Source: Acidobacteriaceae bacterium
Lineage (GTDB): Bacteria; Acidobacteriota; Terriglobia; Terriglobales; SbA1
Assembly (NCBI GenBank): GCA_003136335.1
Contig: PLEA01000419.1
Coordinates: forward strand, 153 to 14,095
Direction: 5' to 3'
Length of the DNA: 13,943 nucleotides
Part shown: piece after piece, positions 1 to 10,172 of the stretch
How the letters are laid out: each line of letters starts with the position of its first letter
Numbering within the stretch: the stretch's first letter is position 1
Notes under the pieces: generated by a model
Told to the model about the DNA's origin: nothing
Seen by the model: the letters and a program-made list of their open reading frames with translations, nothing else
Databases searched by the model: none
Made by a program: the position numbers and the translations under genes

Positions 1-615
1 CTCATACAGCACCACGCCGAACGAAAACAGGTCGCTGCGGGCGTCAATGGTTTCGCTGCGAGCTTGCTCCGGCGACATATAGACGGCCGTCCCGGGAATG
101 ATTCCCACCGCCGTCAAGGACTGGTCCTCTTCCGCGCCCGTGTTGTGTACGAGTTTCGCCAGCCCGAAGTCGAGCACCTTCACTTGCCCGCTCGGTGTCA
201 GAAAAATGTTGGCCGGCTTGATGTCGCGATGAACGATCCCCTTGGTGTGCGACGCCACCAGCGCGTCCGCCACCTGCACACCCACGTCGAGCACTTCCTC
301 CAGCTTCATCGGTTGCCCCCCGATGTGCTGCTTCAGGCTCTCCCCGTCGAGCTTCTCCATGACGATGAAGGGATGCCCGTGGTTGTCTTCAATGCCGTGG
401 ATGGTGCAGATGTTCGGATGGTTCAGTTGCGACGCCGCCCGCGCCTCTCGGGCGAAGCGCTCCAGCGATTTGGGGTCGCCGGCCAGATTCTCTGGAATGA
501 ACTTCAGGGCAACATGCCGCCCCAGGCTCAGATCCTCCGCCTCATACACCACGCCCATACCACCGCCCCCAAGTTTGCCAAGGATGCGGTAATGGGATAC
601 CTGCTGGCCAATCAT
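1..615 (-). CDS. Pkn-type Ser/Thr protein kinase, N-terminal part (cut by left edge)
   Basis: This is a Hanks-type Ser/Thr kinase that would phosphorylate protein Ser/Thr residues with ATP. The reverse strand is open from ATG at 615 to base 1 (205 codons). Motifs appear in order: glycine loop GGGGMGVVY (about residues 16-24), ATP-anchoring Lys in VALK (about 38), alpha-C Glu in AREA (about 57), catalytic loop HRDIKPAN (about 129-136), DFGLAK (about 149-154), activation-segment [11 protein letters not shown], and subdomain [12 protein letters not shown]. All catalytic residues seen so far are intact. The start [12 protein letters not shown] is the usual beginning of acidobacterial Pkn kinases, although the Shine-Dalgarno sequence is weak. 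The C-terminal lobe and any sensor region, often TPR, WD40 or TolB-like in this phylum, lie outside the window. It is divergent from the DUF2934 gene, and no substrate can be named. Confidence 0.95.
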
Positions 616-794
616 GAAAGCGTGGGATCCTGCTCGGCGGTAATGTTAGGCCGCCAGTTGAGTCCGGGTCAACTCCATTGGTTCCCGCGGCCGACCGATG
701 GGTACGTTACGGAGAAACTTGGATTTTGGCCGCGCTGCGCTTTAGTGTGTGCGTGAGAACTGATCCTGGGGAGATCGGTGGAACAGAATCTGCC

Positions 795-2248: not shown

Positions 2249-3439
2249 TCACTCCTCCAAATACAGGCCTGCCGACGCCCCCACCCACTCCATATTTTTA
2301 TTCTGATCCACGCCCATCATCAGCCCCCGCCCCATGCGGATAATCGTCAGTACAGGCGTCAGCTCTTCCAGCCATATATACATCACACGCACCTCCGCCT
2401 TCGTCCCGCCAAACGGAGTCTCAATCACCGGCGCAAAGTGCATCCGCTCCTGCAAAATGTAATACGGACGCTTCTCCGCCGGGATCGCCGCAATATCTTC
2501 TTTTGTCGGCGCAATCACCACCCCCAGCCCCGCAAACGAATACAGCGGCTTCAGCGCGTAATTTTCCAGATCCGAAGGAATCTCCTGCAACCGATTCAGA
2601 AACCAGGTATTCGGCACCGACGCATGCTTCAGATAGGGAATCGAGAACTTGCTGATCCGAAAATACCAGTTCGGATGTCCCGCCCACTCCACATCGAGTT
2701 CGTCGCGCCAATCAAACGCGAGCTGCACATTCTTCCGCTCCAACTCATCCACGATCGTCCGGTTATAAATCCGCCGGATCGGCACGCGCTTTCCGCCGCG
2801 CTCATAATAAAGATGCGACCCATCTTTCCTGATGTCCACAATGTCGACGCTCCGCACCCCAAGCATTTTCTCGGTCAGCAGGAAATCCGGCAGCGTCTTC
2901 TGCTGCTGCGGATGAATCTCCATCAAAATCACATTCTCCGGATCATGCGTCCCCACAATCGCCCGCCGCAAAAGATCGCGGTAGGAAGCCGTATCCAGCC
3001 CACTCAGAAAATACTTCAACCGCCGGTCCAATCCGTACTTTTCAATGTAAGCCTGTGCAAGCGGCCCCTGATACGCATACAGAGAAGGGAAGGCCTGCAA
3101 CTCCACCAACTTCGGCTGCAGATCCCCCCGCGCATCCCGCACCAGCCCAAAATCCACCTGCAAAAACATAGGATGCGGTGCCTCGTTCGGAACCTTGAAC
3201 GCTGCGGGAACCGCCAAGTCCGACTGCGCTCGATACGCAGGATTGTCGACCAACTGTCGAACCAGTTCCTGACCATCCTCCGCCATCCGGTCAAGCAGCG
3301 ACTTAGGGAAGAAACAAGGAGTCTCCGAAATCCGAAACTGCACCTGCGTCCCGCAAGCGTCATCCACCCGCCGCAAGAACGCGCGATATTGATCCGCACT
3401 AAATTTCTCGTTGAATTGCTGACGCAAGGAAGGAATCAT
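2249..3439 (-). CDS. ATP-grasp-like amide ligase, resembling glutathionylspermidine-synthase/circularly permuted types
   Basis: This is a 396-residue cytosolic protein and the last gene of the six-gene block. The C-terminal part looks like an ATP-grasp nucleotide-binding region: ALKPLYSFAGLGV (about 295-307, candidate ATP-binding Lys297 and glycine loop), hinge-like YILQERM (about 327-333), KAEVRVMYIW (about 347-356), and a late QNKNMEW. The N-terminal part has QVDFGLV and PKLVELQAFPSLYAYQ. The middle has LLTEKMLGV...DIRKDG followed by an IRRIYNRTIVDE stretch. That order recalls the circularly permuted ATP-grasp and glutathionylspermidine synthase group, which joins a carboxylate to an amine through an acyl phosphate. 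The assignment is by motif order only, and substrate is unknown. The start is chosen at ATG 3439; TTG at 3451 would add four residues, and neither has a clear Shine-Dalgarno sequence. A 184-base repeat-filled gap separates it from the peptidase gene. Confidence 0.65.
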   Translation of the reverse strand: MIPSLRQQFNEKFSADQYRAFLRRVDDACGTQVQFRISETPCFFPKSLLDRMAEDGQELVRQLVDNPAYRAQSDLAVPAAFKVPNEAPHPMFLQVDFGLVRDARGDLQPKLVELQAFPSLYAYQGPLAQAYIEKYGLDRRLKYFLSGLDTASYRDLLRRAIVGTHDPENVILMEIHPQQQKTLPDFLLTEKMLGVRSVDIVDIRKDGSHLYYERGGKRVPIRRIYNRTIVDELERKNVQLAFDWRDELDVEWAGHPNWYFRISKFSIPYLKHASVPNTWFLNRLQEIPSDLENYALKPLYSFAGLGVVIAPTKEDIAAIPAEKRPYYILQERMHFAPVIETPFGGTKAEVRVMYIWLEELTPVLTIIRMGRGLMMGVDQNKNMEWVGASAGLYLEE

Positions 3440-3483
3440 CAGAAGCGCCAATCAGACTCGGCCGAACCAACTCGCCAAACCAT

Positions 3484-3530
3484 AGCGCCGGCGTCCCGCC
3501 GGCTGTCGCGAGGGCGTCACCGCCCTCGCA
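3484..3530. repeat. Double-hairpin intergenic repeat
   Basis: Two adjacent hairpins sit in the gap between the peptidase and the last ATP-grasp gene. The first is GCCGGC-gtccc-GCCGGC (3487-3503). The second is GCGAGGGCG-tcac-CGCCCTCGC (3508-3529), a perfect nine-base stem with a four-base loop. Neither is followed by a T-run on the transcribed strand, so a classical terminator is unlikely. It could stabilise mRNA ends or attenuate the downstream gene. The layout resembles dispersed repeats of acidobacterial genomes. Confidence 0.6.
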
Positions 3531-3573
3531 TTCCCATTTGTCAGAAGGATAGTTACAACCAACCCAAAGCCCT

Positions 3574-3613
3574 GTCATTCCGACCGAAGCGAAGCTCCCA
3601 CAGCGTTGTCATT
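3574..3613 (+). repeat. GTCATTCC repeat, copy 1 (short)
   Basis: GTCATTCCGACCGAAGCGAAG starts at 3574, and a second GTCATTC follows at 3608. This is the shortest and most diverged of the five copies in the block. It lies just downstream of the stop codon of the M29 peptidase gene. Confidence 0.6.
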
Positions 3614-3623
3614 CTAGAAGCCC

Positions 3624-4703
3624 CTACCCCTCCACCAAGAACTTCCCTTCCCGCATAATCTGCACGTCGTCCACCCAGATATTAAACTTCCTGCCCACTA
3701 CATCAATATGCGTGGTCGAATCCCACTGCGCTCCCGTGTGCGCCCCATATGGATTCCCAAACGCGATATGCACTCCAGGATATTTCTCATCCTGCAGAAT
3801 GTGCCCGATCACTTCTTTCAAATCAATGTTTGTCCCAATGGCAAACTCGCCCACGCGATCGCTGTTCTCGTCGGTATGCGTGTAATTCCAGAAATCACTC
3901 TCCAGCTCGCGATTGTCCGAGTGCGCCTCGGTCAGCCGGTTTCCCTTGATGCGCACTGTCAGGGGATTTTCCTGCAAGTCCCCAAATTTCGCGCACAAAT
4001 AATCGCCCACCACACCATCGATCACAAACGTCCCATTTACCTCGCCCGGCGTCGTAAAAATCTCCCCACCCGGCAAGTTCCCCCATTTTTCCGGAGTGAT
4101 AATCCCGCTCGTCTTCAGCCACTTATACTTCGAATTCAAATCCGCCGTCAGGTCCGTCCCCGCCGCCGTCTGCGCCCGGATCTTCGACGCCTTGCGCACC
4201 ATCTCGACAACTTTCTGGCTGAGCCGGTCCACGCGCTGAAAATCCGCGCGCATCCCCTCCAGCATAATCTGCCGGTTGATATTCACCATGTGCGCATGGC
4301 GAATCTTCCTGCGGTTCACCACGTCGGTCATCTGGATCCGCGACCGCAGTTCGTGGGCCTGCACCTGCGCCGCAAAAATCGAAACCTGGCTGCTCTCCAA
4401 ATCGTCCAGAATCTCGCGCGGCAAATCGGTCATGGGACGCTCCGCCAATTCTTCCAGCACCCACGCATGATACGGCGCGCCCACCTTATCGAGTTCATGC
4501 ACGATCGACGCCGCAATCTCGATCGTTGCCTCGTCCGTGATCGCACAAACCTGTTCGCCAGCCTGCACCTGCAAGCAAACGTTCACCGCGTTGAACGCCC
4601 CCGGTGAATATTCAGGATCAAAAGGAATGTCCAGGATGCCCCGTCTCTCGGTCCTTTGCAGAGACAGTGCAGGGATTTTGACTTGTTCCGCAGGAATGCT
4701 CAT
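3624..4703 (-). CDS. M29-family metallo-aminopeptidase
   Basis: This is a 359-residue protein of the thermophilic aminopeptidase (M29, AmpS/AmpT-like) family, which removes N-terminal residues from peptides using two metal ions. The metal-ligand set appears complete: Glu214 in LPGGEIFTTP, Glu286 in GEFAIGTN, His312 in HIAFGNPYG, Tyr319, and His332/Asp334 in THIDVV. The seven-residue His-to-Tyr and two-residue His-to-Asp spacings match those described for characterised members. It is shorter than the usual roughly 410 residues, mainly in the N-terminal domain. No signal peptide is present, so it should act in the cytosol. Its ATG overlaps the stop of the upstream GCS2 gene (TAATG), which argues for translational coupling and a shared pathway, probably processing or turnover of a peptide made by the neighbouring ligases. 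That role is inferred from context. Confidence 0.88.
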   Translation of the reverse strand: MSIPAEQVKIPALSLQRTERRGILDIPFDPEYSPGAFNAVNVCLQVQAGEQVCAITDEATIEIAASIVHELDKVGAPYHAWVLEELAERPMTDLPREILDDLESSQVSIFAAQVQAHELRSRIQMTDVVNRRKIRHAHMVNINRQIMLEGMRADFQRVDRLSQKVVEMVRKASKIRAQTAAGTDLTADLNSKYKWLKTSGIITPEKWGNLPGGEIFTTPGEVNGTFVIDGVVGDYLCAKFGDLQENPLTVRIKGNRLTEAHSDNRELESDFWNYTHTDENSDRVGEFAIGTNIDLKEVIGHILQDEKYPGVHIAFGNPYGAHTGAQWDSTTHIDVVGRKFNIWVDDVQIMREGKFLVEG

Positions 4704-5839
4704 TATCCGATTTTTCGAACGGCAACCGGCTCTTCTTCCAGCCCCGCTTCCGTCTCCCTAATAATGTAATCGACCACTTTCTCCAAGTCCCCAGTCTCCT
4801 GAAACACCCGCAACTGCCGGTCCGCCCCGCTGCCCTTTTCCAGAATTTCGTGAATATAATTCAGCTCTTCGCGCGAATCCAGTTCATCCACCACTTCGTC
4901 GACGAACTCCAGATACTCAAGCACCAGATCTCGCGCCGGCACTTCCGTCTGCTTGCCGAAATCAACGAGTTTGCCGTCGAGCCCGTACCGCGCCGCCCGC
5001 CACTTGTTCTCCATGATCAAGGCTCGTCTGTACAAGCGGAATCCCTGATTCGCCGTATGCAGCTTATACAGTTTAGCCACCGTAGCCTGAATCAGTGCCG
5101 CCAGCGCGATCGTCTCGTCGGCCCGCATCGGTATATCGCACACCCGAAACTCGATCGTGTTGAAGAATGGATGCGGCCGGATGTCCCACCAGATCTTCTT
5201 CGCGTTATCGATGCAGTTGGTCTTGATCAGCAGCTTGATGAAGTTCTCGTACTCGCCCCAGCTGGGAAAATAATCCGGAATATTCGTTCGCGGAAATTTG
5301 TCGAACACCTTGCACCGATACGACTTCAACCCGGTATTCATCCCCAGCCAGAAGGGCGAATTCGTCGACAGCGCCAGCAGGTGCGGCAGAAAATAGCGCG
5401 CATGATTCATCATGTGGATCGCCGTCTCTCGATCCTCAATCCCGATGTGTACATGCAGCCCAAAAATCAGATTGGCGCGCGCCACCAGCTGCAAATCCTC
5501 GACAATATGCTTATAGCGTTCGTCGGGATGAATCTCCTGCTCCCGCCAATCCCCAAACGGATGCGTCGCCGCCGAGGCCAGCCGCAGCCCATTCTCCTTG
5601 GCCAGTCGCACCATGTCGCGCCGCAGTTTCTTGAGTTCGACCTTCGCCTCTTTAATGCTGCTGCAGACCGATGTCCCCACCTCCACCACCGACTGGTGCA
5701 TCTCCGCCTTCACCCTCTCCTGAAGAATCATCTTTCCCTTCTCCAGGATCTCGGCATGAATGTGCGACCGCAGATCCCGCGTCTCCGGATCCACCGTCTG
5801 ATACTCCTCTTCAATCCCGATAGTAAAAGTAGGCTGCAT
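4703..5839 (-). CDS. GCS2/YbdK-family carboxylate-amine ligase (glutamate-cysteine ligase-like)
   Basis: This 378-residue enzyme belongs to the GCS2 family. Those enzymes use ATP to couple a glutamate or similar carboxylate to an amine. E. coli YbdK has weak gamma-glutamylcysteine ligase activity, and other members act in ergothioneine or other small-peptide pathways. Diagnostic motifs are the N-terminal FTIGIEEEYQ (Glu10-Glu12, metal/ATP site), LIFGLHVHIGIED (about 124-136) and NTIEFRVCDIPMRADE (about 227-242). The length matches the family. The start at MQPTFTIGIEEE is canonical, but the ribosome binding site is poor; the closest purine run is the GGAATGAC end of a repeat 14 bases upstream. 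The amine and acyl substrates cannot be read from sequence. The one-base overlap with the M29 peptidase gene links them functionally. Two ATP-grasp genes in the block could add further residues. Confidence 0.92.
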   Translation of the reverse strand: MQPTFTIGIEEEYQTVDPETRDLRSHIHAEILEKGKMILQERVKAEMHQSVVEVGTSVCSSIKEAKVELKKLRRDMVRLAKENGLRLASAATHPFGDWREQEIHPDERYKHIVEDLQLVARANLIFGLHVHIGIEDRETAIHMMNHARYFLPHLLALSTNSPFWLGMNTGLKSYRCKVFDKFPRTNIPDYFPSWGEYENFIKLLIKTNCIDNAKKIWWDIRPHPFFNTIEFRVCDIPMRADETIALAALIQATVAKLYKLHTANQGFRLYRRALIMENKWRAARYGLDGKLVDFGKQTEVPARDLVLEYLEFVDEVVDELDSREELNYIHEILEKGSGADRQLRVFQETGDLEKVVDYIIRETEAGLEEEPVAVRKIG

Positions 5840-5853
5840 CGCTATTTCTGCTT

Positions 5854-5923
5854 GTCATTCCGAGCGAAGTCGAGGAACCTGCTGTTGGCCCGTAGCGCCG
5901 CTGCTCTACGGGTGAAGAACCAG
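5854..5923 (+). repeat. GTCATTCC repeat, copy 2 with CCCGTAG hairpin
   Basis: GTCATTCCGAGCGAAGTCGAG starts at 5854 and leads into a seven-base stem, CCCGTAG (5889-5895) with CTACGGG (5906-5912), loop of ten bases. It lies immediately upstream of the GCS2 gene. Read on the mRNA strand, its end GGAATGAC comes 14 bases before that start codon. Confidence 0.7.
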
Positions 5924-5968
5924 GCCAGAACAGTATAACAACGACCAAGAAACACAGGACCGAGAACC

Positions 5969-6340
5969 TCAATCCCACTCTTCATTCTCCGCAACCCGCG
6001 CCTTTACAATCTTCTTCACCAGCACGTCCGGCAAAGGCTGATCCGAAGGAAACTGAATCGTCCCCTTGGAAGTAGCGAAGCCCTTGAGTTCCTTGGCGAA
6101 CTTCTCGATCACCCCGGACCCCGTCGGGAACAAGCTGCAATGATTCTTGAACGCCGCATACCCCACCAGCATCCCGTTGTACTTAAACATCGGAATCCGG
6201 TAGCTGATCACCTCGGTAGTCTCCGCCGGCACCACCGACCGAATTACCGCGCGAATATGTTTCAAAGTGCTGCGAGCCGGCTCCGGCACACGCGCCAGAT
6301 ATTCATCTACATTCTTCGCAGGAGCTTTGCCTTTTTGCAT
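5969..6340 (-). CDS. DUF1801 (YdhG-like) domain protein
   Basis: This is a 123-residue cytosolic protein covering one DUF1801 domain. Recognisable family patterns are VDEYLARVPEPARSTLKHIR, ISYRIPMFKYNGMLVGYAAF, KNHCSLFP, and the C-terminal KGTIQFPSDQPLPDVLVKK with VKARVAEN. The family includes Bacillus YdhG, annotated as an iron chaperone, but biochemical function is not established for most members. The start is set at ATG 6340. An in-frame start at 6427 would add 29 residues that are only the translation of a GTCATCC-type repeat and are therefore rejected. The proposed ribosome binding site, AGGATGAC ten bases before ATG, is the end of that repeat. It is flanked on both sides by the repeat family, and its role in the ligase block is unclear; it may be a passenger gene. 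Confidence 0.88.
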   Translation of the reverse strand: MQKGKAPAKNVDEYLARVPEPARSTLKHIRAVIRSVVPAETTEVISYRIPMFKYNGMLVGYAAFKNHCSLFPTGSGVIEKFAKELKGFATSKGTIQFPSDQPLPDVLVKKIVKARVAENEEWD

Positions 6341-6346
6341 ATGTCT

Positions 6347-6413
6347 GTCATCCTGAGCGAAGTGGCAGGTGCGCGAAGCGGACCTGCCACGCAGTCGAAG
6401 GATCCCTACCTGC
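6347..6413 (+). repeat. GTCATCC repeat, copy 3 with nine-base hairpin
   Basis: GTCATCCTGAGCGAAG starts at 6347. It continues into a perfect stem GTGGCAGGT (6362-6370) and ACCTGCCAC (6382-6390) with an eleven-base loop, then GCAGTCGAAGGATCCC. The copy fills the gap between the ATP-grasp and DUF1801 genes. On the mRNA strand its terminus AGGATGAC is well placed as the DUF1801 ribosome binding site. Confidence 0.75.
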
Positions 6414-6464
6414 AGTGCGCTGCCCACAACTCGTCAGCGAATTCTCTCACGAAGAATGTGGCAT

Positions 6465-7472
6465 CTATTTCGTAGGCTTCCCCCGCTTCCGCTCCGCCAC
6501 CCAAGCCGGTTCCCCCTTACCCGCTTGCTTGGAAGCCGTGCCCGCCAAAAACTCCGCCCACCGCATCTCCTTCACCGGACTCTCCCCGCTCACCGCCATC
6601 TTCACCGCCATCTCCGCCACCGCATTCACAATCCAGTCAAAATTCTCCTGCCCGACAGAAGTAATCTCCGCATCCGGCGCCGGATTCAGAAAGTCAATCG
6701 CATACGGCACTCCACCCTCTACCGCAAACTCCACGGTATTCAAGTCGTACCCCAAAGCCCGGCACAGCGCCAAAGCATCCTTCTCCATGCGCGCCCGCAG
6801 CCCCGCCGATGACGGCGCCGGATTCCCCTTCACATAGCGCTCATGATGCGGCGCCCGCGGATCGTATTTCATGATGTGTACTTTTTCCTGCCCCACCACA
6901 TAGCACCGGTAATACTCGTCGAATACCACGCCGTGCTGCAGCGTCATGCACAAGTCGCCCGTCTGGTTGTAGTGATGAAAAAAATCCTCCGGCGAATGCA
7001 CCTGATAAACATGCTTCCAGCCGCCTCCGGAATAGGGTTTCAAAAACGCAGGGAATCCAACGTAATCAAACAGCTCCTGCCAGTTCAGCGGAAACATCAA
7101 ATTCCGCATCGACTGATCCGTAGTCCCCTCCGGATGCTTGTTATGCGGCAGAATCACCGTCGGCGGAATCGCCACGCCCATCTTGTGCGCCAGCGCATAG
7201 TTGAAGAACTTGTCGTCGGCCGACCACCAGAACGGATTGTTCACCACAACCGTCCCGTGCAGCACCGCATTCTTCAAGTAGGCGCGATAGAACTGAATGT
7301 CCTGCGAAATCCGGTCAATGATCACCGCATACTTCTTCGGCTCATCCATCCGAACGCCGCCCACCTTCACAAACTCCGCCTCAACCCCCTCGAGCTTCAT
7401 CGAGTTGATCTTCTCCACCAGCGCCGGCGGAAACGTATTCTCCATCCCAAACAAAATCCCAATCTTCTTCAT
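6465..7472 (-). CDS. ATP-grasp ligase, D-Ala-D-Ala ligase/RimK-like
   Basis: This is a 335-residue cytosolic ATP-grasp enzyme expected to form an amide bond through an acyl-phosphate intermediate. The N-terminal pre-ATP-grasp domain starts MKKIGILFG. The ATP-binding part has PAFLKPYSGGGWKHV (about 142-154, Lys145 and glycine loop), the LQHGVVFDEYYRCYVVG stretch (about 178-194), and catalytic metal ligands Glu248 (TVEFAVEGG), Asp260 and Asn263 (YAIDFLNPAPDAE). The C-terminal 40 residues are basic and low in complexity. Start ATG 7472 has GGAG nine bases upstream. An in-frame upstream start at 7505 would translate the GTCATTCC repeat and is rejected. It resembles D-Ala-D-Ala ligase, glutathione synthetase and RimK relatives, but the match is not good enough to name the substrate. 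In this block it is a plausible second-step ligase acting with the GCS2 enzyme. Confidence 0.85.
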   Translation of the reverse strand: MKKIGILFGMENTFPPALVEKINSMKLEGVEAEFVKVGGVRMDEPKKYAVIIDRISQDIQFYRAYLKNAVLHGTVVVNNPFWWSADDKFFNYALAHKMGVAIPPTVILPHNKHPEGTTDQSMRNLMFPLNWQELFDYVGFPAFLKPYSGGGWKHVYQVHSPEDFFHHYNQTGDLCMTLQHGVVFDEYYRCYVVGQEKVHIMKYDPRAPHHERYVKGNPAPSSAGLRARMEKDALALCRALGYDLNTVEFAVEGGVPYAIDFLNPAPDAEITSVGQENFDWIVNAVAEMAVKMAVSGESPVKEMRWAEFLAGTASKQAGKGEPAWVAERKRGKPTK

Positions 7473-7500
7473 CGCAAAACGCTCCGTATCTCCAACTCTT

Positions 7501-7551
7501 GTCATTCCGAACCGGGCTGAAAGCCCGGCGAGGGACCTGCTGTTGTTTTTG
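7501..7551 (+). repeat. GTCATTCC repeat, copy 4 with CCGGGCT hairpin
   Basis: GTCATTCCGA at 7501 runs directly into the stem CCGGGCT (7512-7518), loop GAA, AGCCCGG (7522-7528), then GCGAGGGACCTGCTGTTG. It is located between the esterase and ATP-grasp genes. The outer words and the GACCTGCTGTTG tail resemble copy 2 (AACCTGCTGTTGG), but the inner hairpin is different. Confidence 0.7.
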
Positions 7552-7569
7552 GCTCGAACCGCCCATTTC

Positions 7570-8280
7570 CTAAAAATATTTCCCCGCCATCCTCACCCAA
7601 AGCGGCCAATCATGCTCCAAATTATCCCCCCAAACGTCCAGCCAGTGGGGAATCGCCTTCCCATTCAAAATCGCCGAGAACTTCACGTTCTGATCCAGGC
7701 ATATATCCCAGTGCGCCGACCCCAGCACAATCTTCATCTGCCGGTACCGGCTCAAGAACCAGTCATCCGACATATTCGGCAAAAAGTCCGGAGGATTGTT
7801 GAAGTAACAATCATTATCGTAGTACCCATCCAAAAACTTATGAATATCAAACGCCCCGCTCATGCTCACGCAATGCGTCACCACATCCGGATGCTTCAAC
7901 GCAAAATTCACCGCGTGGTATCCGCCAAAACTGCATCCCGTCAGCGCCAGCCGCGGCGTCTGATTCTTCCACCGGATAAACGGCAGCAACTCATGCAGAA
8001 TGTACCGTTCATACTGCAAGTGCCGCATCACGCGCACCCGCGGATGCACGCCCTTGTTGTACCAACTCTCCGTATCTACGGCGTCCGGACAAAACACCTG
8101 CAATTCGCCGCTCTCGATCTTCGGCGCCAGCGTCCCAATCATTCCCCGGTCTTCATATTCGAAAAACCTCCCCATCGACGTAGGAAACACCACGAGCGGC
8201 GTCCCCGCATGCCCAAAAACCAGCGCCTCCATGTCCCGGTGCAGTTCCTGGCTATAAGCCTTGTGATATTCGCGATTCAT
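7570..8280 (-). CDS. Esterase-like alpha/beta hydrolase
   Basis: This is a 236-residue protein of the putative esterase (esterase D/PF00756-like) alpha/beta-hydrolase type. It has the nucleophile elbow GCSFGGYHAV with Ser117, a probable acid Asp192 or Asp196 in GSAHWDICLDQN, and a C-terminal catalytic His223 in NLEHDWPLW. An early LVVFPTSMGRFFEYEDRGM segment forms the oxyanion side. No signal peptide is seen, so it should act in the cytosol. It is the first gene of the minus-strand block that contains three ligase-type enzymes and an aminopeptidase. It could hydrolyse or transfer an acyl group on the same product, but this is context only. The start at ATG 8280 has no good Shine-Dalgarno sequence, and the Met-Asn-Arg-Glu start fits the length of the fold. 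The complement carries a long antisense frame without support. Confidence 0.85.
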   Translation of the reverse strand: MNREYHKAYSQELHRDMEALVFGHAGTPLVVFPTSMGRFFEYEDRGMIGTLAPKIESGELQVFCPDAVDTESWYNKGVHPRVRVMRHLQYERYILHELLPFIRWKNQTPRLALTGCSFGGYHAVNFALKHPDVVTHCVSMSGAFDIHKFLDGYYDNDCYFNNPPDFLPNMSDDWFLSRYRQMKIVLGSAHWDICLDQNVKFSAILNGKAIPHWLDVWGDNLEHDWPLWVRMAGKYF

Positions 8281-8334: not shown

Positions 8335-8430
8335 TCTTGCAGCCGAAATATCTTACCGGATGAAAGGCAGAAAACCCTAGGGAAGCGAGAGTGGTGCAGC
8401 TTGAGCTTCGAGGGTCTGTTACCCGTGGGT

Positions 8431-8511
8431 GTCATCCGGAGCGAAGTCGAAGGGGATCTTGCGCGGGCAACTCTACCGGCTGGCCAGCGCCGCACACCCA
8501 AACGAAATGAC
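8431..8511 (+). repeat. GTCATCC repeat, copy 5, with both ends
   Basis: This copy begins GTCATCCGGAGCGAAGTCGA and ends AAACGAAATGAC, so the outer words GTCAT and ATGAC form a terminal inverted repeat about 81 bases apart. The centre holds a short palindrome GCTGGCCAGC. It lies between the NTF2-like gene and the esterase block and is the most complete copy, showing the probable element limits. Confidence 0.7.
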
Positions 8512-9188: not shown

Positions 9189-10172
9189 ATGTCCGAACCT
9201 CACCTCACCGAAGCCGACGTTCGTCGCCTCCTCGATCCCACGCAGTTGAGCGCTGCGATCGAGTCCGCATTCCGCGATCGCTATCCCTCCGTCCTCATCC
9301 CGCAGCGCACTCAGACGCAACTCCCCCAGGGCATCTTCCTGACCATGTCCTGTTACGACAGAATCTCCAACGTTCTCGGAATGAAGCTTGTGCTGGTTCG
9401 AGAGCAAGCTCGAAATCAAGATCAGCACCGCACGGATGACAGCGCTCGCGAAGGCCGCATCCAAGCCACCTATCTGCTGCTCGATCCGGAAACCGCGCAA
9501 CCCCGCCTCACCATCGCGGCCAACTACCTCACCGACCTGCGCACCGCCGCAACCTCCGCCGTAGCCACAAAATTTCTCGCGCGCCCGGAAGCCTTCGCTC
9601 TCGGCATCTTTGGCACCGGACGCCTCGCCCGCGCGCATCTCGCCGTGCTTCCCCTGGTGCGCAACTTTCAGCGCGTGTTCGTCTGCGGACGCAATCCTGC
9701 TCGCTCTGCTGAATTTGTGCACAAAGTTTCCACGGAATTTCCGAGGTTGACCATCACCGCAGCCGACGCACGCACCTGCGCCGCTCAATCCGACGTGCTC
9801 TGCACGTGCACCTCGGCCTCCGCTCCGCTCTTCGACGGTCGCGACCTGCGTCCCGGAACCCATCTCAATCTAGTCGGAGCCTTCCGGACTGAAAGGCGCG
9901 AAGTCGATACCCACACGATCCAGCGATCGCGCGTCGTGGTCGATACGCATAGCGCTGCCGCGTCCGAAATGGGGGAGCTGTTGATTCCCCTGAAAGAAGG
10001 CGCGATCGCGCCGGATCACGTCGCCGCAGATCTTCACCAATTAGTCAGTGGAAAGAAGCAGGGAAGACGCAGCCCGGAAGAAATTACCGTATTCAAGAGC
10101 GTAGGCTGCGCCCTGGAGGACCTGGTGGCCGCCGAACTCTTGCTCTCGGCGCATCCCGCTCAAAAAGTTTGA
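9189..10172 (+). CDS. Ornithine cyclodeaminase/mu-crystallin family protein
   Basis: This 327-residue cytosolic protein belongs to the NAD(P)-dependent ornithine cyclodeaminase/mu-crystallin family, which includes ornithine and lysine cyclodeaminases, alanine dehydrogenase and imine/ketimine reductases. Visible residues are Arg40 in LIPQRTQ, Lys66 in GMKLV, Arg118 in TDLRTAATSA, the Rossmann motif LGIFGTGRLARAH (138-150), CTCTSASAPLF, Asp240 in RREVD, and the C-terminal TVFKSVGCALEDLVAA. The catalytic set known from ornithine cyclodeaminase is therefore kept. The substrate loop between Lys66 and Arg118 is unusual: residues 71-92 are long, polar and charged where relatives have a short Pro/Gly/Asn stretch. 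Substrate is therefore uncertain. No amino-acid pathway genes are adjacent. ATG 9189 fits the family start (LTEADVRRLL). Confidence 0.9.
   Translation: MSEPHLTEADVRRLLDPTQLSAAIESAFRDRYPSVLIPQRTQTQLPQGIFLTMSCYDRISNVLGMKLVLVREQARNQDQHRTDDSAREGRIQATYLLLDPETAQPRLTIAANYLTDLRTAATSAVATKFLARPEAFALGIFGTGRLARAHLAVLPLVRNFQRVFVCGRNPARSAEFVHKVSTEFPRLTITAADARTCAAQSDVLCTCTSASAPLFDGRDLRPGTHLNLVGAFRTERREVDTHTIQRSRVVVDTHSAAASEMGELLIPLKEGAIAPDHVAADLHQLVSGKKQGRRSPEEITVFKSVGCALEDLVAAELLLSAHPAQKV

What the first reader, a model, noticed from the sequence alone, without database searches (positions are those of the whole stretch)
2249..8280. Six-gene block with a GCS2 ligase, two ATP-grasp-type ligases, an M29 peptidase and an esterase: candidate uncharacterised peptide/amide pathway
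The sequence shows six consecutive minus-strand genes: esterase, ATP-grasp, DUF1801, GCS2/YbdK, M29 peptidase, ATP-grasp-like. Three come from families that join a carboxylate to an amine. GCS2 and ATP-grasp enzymes work in succession in glutathione-type and related small-peptide pathways, and amidoligase plus peptidase neighbourhoods are known for making and removing peptide products or tags. No known pathway gene (egtB/C/D, gshB, poly-gamma-glutamate, cyanophycin, ribosomally made peptide precursor) is adjacent. My inference is that the block makes, trims and perhaps esterifies or hydrolyses a small gamma-glutamyl-like peptide, or a peptide tag on a protein, not yet described.
Basis: partly seen in the sequence, partly recalled or inferred. 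Interest (0 to 1): 0.75.

Follow-up and report, generated by a model that had tools for sequence, protein, structure and literature searches.

The report
Conserved three-ligase peptide pathway, product unknown
A soil acidobacterium carries a set of five neighbouring enzyme genes, three of which can join acids to amines; much the same set keeps together in another bacterial phylum, so it very probably makes a small peptide-like compound that has not been identified.

Summary
Five of the six genes (esterase, ATP-grasp, GCS2, M29, second ligase LIG2) form a conserved block; DUF1801 is a passenger (4 of 80 loci). The full order occurs in 30 of 46 AGRASP loci with enough flank and recurs in Bacteroidota, usually with a GATase-like hydrolase or no gene in the M29 slot. 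In 198 Bacteroidota genomes, 57 of 59 with LIG2 have AGRASP, 55 have high-scoring GCS2, and no such GCS2 occurs without LIG2. LIG2, unknown to Pfam and NCBIfam, is predicted to have the glutathionylspermidine/eukaryotic glutathione synthetase fold, nearest the peptide-polyamine ligases YgiC and YjfC. Catalytic residues of esterase, M29 and GATase are conserved. Against: 15 of 44 Bacteroidota LIG2 regions hold LIG2 alone, and the esterase and hydrolase can be absent. BshC is in nearly all genomes checked, so the block does not replace bacillithiol. Best reading: a cytoplasmic NRPS-independent pathway that builds and trims a small gamma-glutamyl-type peptide or peptide-amine. Substrates and product are not shown.

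The parts
7570..8280 (-). EST: alpha/beta-hydrolase esterase (PF00756), 236 aa, no signal peptide seen by eye; S117 (GCSFGG), D192 and H223 invariant in 44 aligned sequences; first gene of the conserved block
6465..7505 (-). AGRASP: ATP-grasp ligase whose residues 95-307 resemble D-Ala-D-Ala ligase, RimK and LysX; likely start at 7472
5969..6427 (-). DUF1801 (PF08818) gene, likely start 6340; passenger between AGRASP and GCS2, found in 4 of 80 loci; not part of the conserved block
4703..5839 (-). GCS2: YbdK-type carboxylate-amine ligase (PF04107; NF010039), 378 aa, GIEEE motif invariant in 38 aligned sequences
3624..4703 (-). M29-family metallopeptidase-like protein, 359 aa; E214, E286, H312, H332, D334 invariant in 31 aligned sequences; start codon overlaps the GCS2 stop by one base
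2249..3451 (-). LIG2: ligase with predicted glutathionylspermidine / eukaryotic glutathione synthetase fold (mean pLDDT 92), no Pfam or NCBIfam family; likely start 3439
3573..3589 (+). REP-like repeat copy (2 mismatches to TGTCATCCNGAGCGAAG) in the M29-LIG2 gap
5853..5876 (+). REP-like repeat copy just upstream of GCS2
6346..6369 (+). REP-like repeat copy just upstream of the likely DUF1801 start
8430..8453 (+). REP-like repeat copy upstream of EST

Best explanation
The block is a dedicated cytoplasmic pathway, independent of ribosomes and of NRPSs, that forms successive ATP-driven amide bonds to make a small gamma-glutamyl-type peptide or peptide-amine, and that trims or recycles it. Inferred order: GCS2 (YbdK type) joins the gamma-carboxylate of glutamate to an amine; AGRASP (Ddl/RimK-like ATP-grasp) adds another amino acid; LIG2 (glutathionylspermidine/glutathione-synthetase fold) closes the molecule with a further amino acid or a (poly)amine. 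M29, mainly in Acidobacteriota, or a class-I GATase-like hydrolase, in many Bacteroidota, cuts one of these amide bonds (removal of a protecting residue, or turnover). EST is an active-looking serine hydrolase acting on an ester or thioester form. Shown here: gene set, order, co-occurrence, families or predicted folds, conserved catalytic residues. Inferred: substrates, order of steps, product.
Against: No substrate or product evidence. 4 of 59 Bacteroidota LIG2 genomes gave no GCS2 match, and the X-type Bacteroidota regions (L180-L190) have no adjacent GCS2 in 11 of 11, with only a lower-scoring one elsewhere in 4 of those 11 genomes, so gamma-glutamyl chemistry is not obligatory for the AGRASP part. 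AGRASP occurs without LIG2 in 14 Bacteroidota and 31 Acidobacteriota genomes. EST is missing near AGRASP in 10 of 68 loci. Of 18 LIG2 genomes checked, 13 have no strong match to M29 or to the GATase, so the hydrolase is dispensable or another one serves. 15 of 44 Bacteroidota and 6 of 15 scored Acidobacteriota LIG2 regions have LIG2 alone. The nearest locus, L001, has no LIG2 near its block. Of the 14 Acidobacteriota X genes, 6 lie 4.5-8.1 kb from AGRASP on the other strand. Fisher p-values assume independent genomes, which they are not. AGRASP superposes on known ligases only over its ATP-grasp part. No transporter or regulator family accompanies the block in more than 18 of 140 loci (ORFs of 100 aa or more).
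Confidence: 0.5

Rival explanations
1. A protein-modification system: one or more of the ligases add amino acids, a peptide or an amine to a protein (RimK-like or Pup-like), and M29 or the GATase-like enzyme removes them.
For: AGRASP resembles RimK and LysX among others; PMC2588565 (passages) reports GCS2 as the best profile match of the Pup ligase PafA; a hydrolase often travels with the ligases.
Against: Among short ORF segments in and within 800 bases of the block in 120 loci I saw no convincing conserved tag gene, but only the 12 largest clusters were printed and judged by eye. GCS2 is a clear YbdK-type protein. LIG2's closest solved folds act on small peptides. No other ORF family of 100 aa or more is in more than 20 of 140 loci apart from the block genes and ORFs that look antisense to coding regions.
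Confidence: 0.15
2. Amine utilisation or detoxification by glutamylation: GCS2, LIG2 and AGRASP attach glutamate or a peptide to an amine such as a polyamine, and the hydrolase releases the processed product, as in the Puu pathway (recalled).
For: LIG2 fold nearest to peptide-polyamine ligases; a free-standing class-I GATase-like hydrolase in many Bacteroidota is reminiscent of PuuD (recalled).
Against: I saw no oxidase, dehydrogenase or aminotransferase family among the most conserved neighbours (60 largest clusters printed, named by eye). No PuuD model is among the NCBIfam hits of the two GATase proteins scanned (best weak hits PRK07567, PRK09065).
Confidence: 0.15
3. A glutathione-like low-molecular-weight thiol pathway: GCS2 makes gamma-Glu-Cys and LIG2 or AGRASP adds the third residue.
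For: YbdK has gamma-glutamyl:cysteine ligase activity (title of a reference seen); LIG2 has the eukaryotic glutathione synthetase fold; of 44 LIG2 genomes checked only G072 has a strong canonical GshB ATP-domain match (161.7 bits), five others score 55-75 bits and nine 23-38 bits (the same family also rings in Bacillus subtilis and archaeal controls, so weak hits are unspecific).
Against: BshC is present in 196 of 198 Bacteroidota genomes whether or not they have the block (one of the two without it, G308, has LIG2) and in 22 of 23 Acidobacteriota LIG2 genomes, so a bacillithiol-type thiol is already predicted. Two ligases suffice for glutathione; the third ligase and M29 are unexplained.
Confidence: 0.12
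4. Neighbouring but functionally unrelated housekeeping genes.
For: GCS2, esterase and M29 families are common (recalled); a third of the fetched LIG2 regions have LIG2 alone.
Against: Order kept in two phyla, strong genome-level co-occurrence even where genes are unlinked, and replacement of the hydrolase and of LIG2 in the same setting.
Confidence: 0.03

Closest known systems
E. coli YgiC and YjfC (peptide-polyamine ligases) and GspS
   Different: No sequence-level match: the PDB profile search found none up to E = 1 and there is no Pfam GSP_synth hit. A GspS-related ligase is reported with PspA-type operons (PMC11237479 passage), not with GCS2 and M29
E. coli YbdK / GCS2 carboxylate-amine ligase (NF010039)
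   Same: GCS2 of the block is a clear family member (558 bits vs cut-off 371)
   Different: E. coli YbdK is not known to me as part of such a block (recalled). Here it sits with two more ligases and, in the 198 Bacteroidota, high-scoring copies occur only with LIG2 (55 of 55)
Glutathione pathway (gamma-Glu-Cys ligase plus glutathione synthetase)
   Same: A gamma-glutamyl ligase followed by a GS-fold ligase
   Different: A third ligase and often a hydrolase are linked; nearly all genomes checked carry BshC
GCS-like ligase with a linked GATase-like thiol peptidase in Proteobacteria (PMC2588565, passage)
   Different: A different ligase family; the passage mentions no ATP-grasp, GspS-like, esterase or M29 partner
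Amidoligase gene-neighbourhood predictions of Iyer et al. 2009 (Mol Biosyst; recalled, not held)
   Same: General prediction of ATP-grasp and GCS-type ligases with unrelated peptidases making peptides
   Different: I could not check whether this exact block is listed there
E-64 biosynthesis ATP-grasp ligase Cp1B (PDB 9cjn)
   Different: Fungal, partnered with an amide bond synthetase; no GCS2 or M29 in the passages I saw

Membership tests
YbdK/GCS2 carboxylate-amine ligases | PF04107/NF010039 profile above curated cut-off | tested here: met
   218 bits (cut-off 21) and 558 bits (cut-off 371)
YbdK/GCS2 carboxylate-amine ligases | GhExE metal/ATP signature | tested here: met
   G8-I9-E10-E11-E12 invariant in 38 sequences; signature as given in PMC2588565 (passage)
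YbdK/GCS2 carboxylate-amine ligases | gamma-glutamyl ligase activity | not testable with these tools
   needs assay
Glutathionylspermidine/eukaryotic glutathione synthetase superfamily (LIG2) | shared overall fold | tested here: met
Glutathionylspermidine/eukaryotic glutathione synthetase superfamily (LIG2) | GSP_synth (PF03738) or other named family profile hit | tested here: not met
   no family at E 0.001 in Pfam or NCBIfam; at E up to 1 only ATPgrasp_ST at 0.09
Glutathionylspermidine/eukaryotic glutathione synthetase superfamily (LIG2) | peptide-amine ligase activity | not testable with these tools
   needs assay
RimK / D-Ala-D-Ala ligase-type ATP-grasp (AGRASP) | ATP-grasp fold | tested here: met
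RimK / D-Ala-D-Ala ligase-type ATP-grasp (AGRASP) | RimK family score above curated cut-off | tested here: not met
   TIGR00768 26 bits vs 143.4, the only NCBIfam hit at E 0.001
M29 metallopeptidases | PF02073 above cut-off | tested here: met
   55.4 bits vs 27
M29 metallopeptidases | two-metal ligand set E, E, H, H, D (recalled) | tested here: inconclusive
   E214, E286, H312, H332, D334 invariant in 31 sequences; the first three line up with E, E, H of AmpS 1zjc, but that alignment ends before the last two, and the ligand identities are recalled
M29 metallopeptidases | aminopeptidase activity | not testable with these tools
   the profile also weakly matches a dioxygenase, 7cn3 (E 0.0037)
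PF00756 esterases | profile above cut-off and Ser-Asp-His triad | tested here: met
   40.3 bits vs 22; S117, D192, H223 invariant in 44 sequences; which residues form the triad is inferred from the motif and the 5vol alignment
Glutathione biosynthesis | canonical GshB in host genomes | tested here: not met
   strong PF02955 match in 1 of 44 LIG2 genomes; 15 of 44 over the family cut-off, 14 of them at 75 bits or less. The 44 were all 23 strong Acidobacteriota and 21 of the 59 Bacteroidota LIG2 genomes
Ribosomal-peptide (graspetide) or protein-tag cluster | conserved short precursor/tag ORF beside the ligases | tested here: inconclusive
   5426 short segments of 120 loci clustered; the 12 largest clusters (up to 35 loci), judged by eye, look like antisense, shifted-frame or low-complexity segments or the GCS2 start. 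Smaller clusters were not viewed, pairs over 90% identical were dropped, and an unlinked precursor is not excluded

The most novel reading that the evidence does not exclude
A widespread undescribed metabolite (a gamma-glutamyl pseudo-peptide or peptide-polyamine conjugate) is made by a near-obligate trio of ligases (YbdK-type GCS2, Ddl/RimK-like ATP-grasp, GspS-fold LIG2) in Acidobacteriota and Bacteroidota, with the amide-cutting step supplied interchangeably by an M29 metallopeptidase or a class-I amidotransferase-like hydrolase.
Probability: 0.4. Interest if true: 0.8.

Novelty: new variant of a known kind. Interest (0 to 1): 0.58.

Why it matters
If right, many uncultured soil Acidobacteriota and many Bacteroidota share a small-molecule pathway with no known product, and LIG2, a family of at least 7999 database proteins (the 120 listed there are nearly all unnamed or called hypothetical), gets a testable role. 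It also offers a natural experiment: two unrelated hydrolases in one slot, and two GspS-like ligases beside the same partner.

Tried and rejected
Generic unrelated-genes reading: rejected on order and co-occurrence. DUF1801 as a pathway member: rejected (4 of 80 loci). Bacillithiol replacement: rejected, BshC in 196 of 198 Bacteroidota and 22 of 23 Acidobacteriota LIG2 genomes. Plasmid-borne copies to get annotated context: no match for LIG2 or AGRASP. Sequence search of LIG2 in PDB: none up to E = 1. Source names for LIG2 relatives: nearly all missing or hypothetical protein in the 120 rows listed each time. Linked short precursor: none recognised, with the limits given in Membership tests. 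Promoter scan: 3 found against 3.6 expected, uninformative; terminator-like sites 14 found against 6.6 expected, on both strands, not used. The LIG2 tree mixes the two phyla, with several low supports; not used for a transfer claim.

Papers: eight searches listed nothing that I recognised, from titles and abstract starts, as describing this block. Passages only were seen of PMC12568646, PMC11237479, PMC4431377 (nothing relevant) and PMC2588565. Iyer 2009 is not held, so a description there is not excluded.

Rows dropped before counts: co-occurrence used only strong matches. Bacteroidota: 2 of 61 LIG2 matches (G216, G250, E about 1e-3) and 7 of 78 AGRASP matches (E 2e-7 to 9e-4) were left out; 6 of 61 GCS2 matches below 550 bits are left out of the main figure and included in a second one. 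Acidobacteriota: 3 of 26 LIG2 matches (G137 at 2.7e-11, G139, G146) and 16 of 69 AGRASP matches (six at 1e-43 to 1e-49, ten at 1e-5 or weaker) were left out. L155 fell below the 60-bit cut.


Full report
WHAT IS THERE. The window (closest relative in the collection searched: L001, an Acidobacteriaceae MAG, 92% identity over AGRASP) holds six minus-strand ORFs at 2249-8280. Profile scans identify the esterase (PF00756), DUF1801, GCS2 (PF04107; NCBIfam NF010039 carboxylate-amine ligase, 558 bits against a cut-off of 371) and M29 (PF02073). AGRASP reaches only a sub-threshold RimK hit; LIG2 reaches none. Homologue starts suggest LIG2 from 3439, AGRASP from 7472, and DUF1801 probably from 6340 (by eye).

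CONSERVATION. Mapping the window's proteins on them and re-scoring with profiles shows EST-AGRASP-GCS2-M29-LIG2 complete in 30 of the 46 loci with enough flank; the other 16 are 7 without EST, 4 without LIG2, 3 with EST-AGRASP only, 1 without EST and LIG2, and 1 without M29. Partner rates where flank allowed: EST 58 of 68, GCS2 63 of 67, M29 51 of 56, LIG2 45 of 53. Record titles include Vicinamibacterales, Chlorobi and Ignavibacteria (L069, L059, L075). DUF1801 is in 4 of 80. L001 keeps EST, AGRASP, GCS2 and M29, but no LIG2 was found in its 21-kb locus.

SECOND PHYLUM. LIG2 was sought in 199 genomes of the phylum of G005 (Granulicella locus L080; 26 matches, 23 strong) and 198 of the phylum of G002 (Chlorobi locus L059; 61 matches, 59 strong); I call these Acidobacteriota and Bacteroidota. 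Of 44 Bacteroidota regions fetched (of 61), 11 are EST-AGRASP-GCS2-GATase-LIG2, 7 EST-AGRASP-GCS2-LIG2, 11 other subsets and 15 LIG2 alone. Of 16 Acidobacteriota regions fetched (of 26) 15 were scored: 9 carry two or more block genes and 6 LIG2 alone. Co-occurrence in Bacteroidota: 57 of 59 LIG2 genomes have AGRASP (71 of 198 overall); 55 of 59 have GCS2 of at least 550 bits, and no such GCS2 occurs without LIG2; 53 of 59 have all three. Acidobacteriota: 22 of 23 LIG2 genomes have strong AGRASP (53 of 199 overall, so 31 have AGRASP without LIG2). Fisher p-values (1.3e-33, 1.1e-44, 8.8e-14) ignore shared ancestry and are only a guide. All 18 LIG2 genomes checked by handle have GCS2; in 17 it lies on another contig or far away, in G357 beside LIG2. 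AGRASP too is often far from LIG2. So the association is not only linkage.

SLOT SWAPS. The gene between GCS2 and LIG2 in many Bacteroidota blocks is a free-standing class-I GATase-like protein (PF00117; C113, H216, E218 invariant in 15 sequences), where Acidobacteriota have M29. Of nine Bacteroidota genomes whose block has nothing in that slot, eight carry the GATase elsewhere, and seven of the nine also have a distant M29 relative (104-125 bits) elsewhere; of 18 other LIG2 genomes checked, five have the GATase, none M29, and 13 neither. M29 blocks outside Acidobacteriota were seen in L109, L059 and L075. Where AGRASP occurs without LIG2, another ligase X is present in 11 of 12 Bacteroidota and 14 of 22 Acidobacteriota regions fetched. 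X matches CP_ATPgrasp_2 and a putative glutathionylspermidine synthase structure (3n6x, E 6.8e-13) and is weakly related to LIG2 by profile comparison (probability 66%, E 5.6e-5). Eight of the 14 Acidobacteriota X genes are within 2 kb of AGRASP on its strand; six lie 4.5-8.1 kb away on the other strand.

WHAT IT LIKELY DOES. Three ligases plus, usually, an amide hydrolase and an esterase, with no transporter or regulator family in more than 18 of 140 loci and no short precursor recognised (limits stated above), fit a cytoplasmic small-molecule pathway: gamma-glutamyl start, extension, GspS-type closure, trimming. The sequence of steps and the substrates are inference. BshC is in 196 of 198 Bacteroidota and 22 of 23 Acidobacteriota LIG2 genomes, and a strong GshB match is in 1 of 44 LIG2 genomes, so the product is probably not the main thiol, though a second thiol is not excluded.

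NOVELTY. Amidoligase-peptidase clusters as a kind are known (PMC2588565 passages, for a different GCS-like family with a GATase-like thiol peptidase; Iyer et al. 2009, recalled and not held). The eight searches listed under Tried and rejected showed no paper that I recognised as describing this block. I file it as a new variant of a known kind.

Noticed in passing
window 3573-3589, 5853-5869, 6346-6362, 8430-8446: Four copies of a REP-like repeat (TGTCATCCNGAGCGAAG, up to 2 mismatches; 0.01 expected from shuffles) lie in gaps of the block: before LIG2, GCS2, DUF1801 and EST. Exact copies occur in 7 of 199 loci, e.g. three in L002.
   Followed up: partly
window 1-700, minus strand: The plus-strand ORF at 64-756 looks like ORFs antisense to Ser/Thr protein kinases in relatives (by eye), so a truncated kinase gene may run off this end.
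   Followed up: no
window 9189-10172, plus strand: Ornithine cyclodeaminase / mu-crystallin family protein (PF02423) beside the block; a match lies in only 5 of 80 loci (L022, L023, L024, L057, L064).
   Followed up: partly
L133:2887-4104, L139:2994-4223, L135:9248-10456, L067:1659-2867, L072:14337-15560; also L183, L184, L190: A further ATP-grasp ligase (AGRASP3, about 405 aa, weakly PRK02186-like) lies next to or near the block in some Bacteroidota and Acidobacteriota.
   Followed up: partly
L161, L165, L167, L170, L171, L173, L175: In these Acidobacteriota an AGRASP homologue lies near what looks by eye like a PspA-type gene, and in 5 of the 7 an X-like ligase is in the region, reminiscent of the PspA / GspS-related ligase operons of PMC11237479 (passage).
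   Followed up: no
L181-L187 and L190, about 3.2-3.6 kb downstream of AGRASP: A second gene that looks esterase-like by eye follows the GATase in 8 of the 11 X-type Bacteroidota regions.
   Followed up: no
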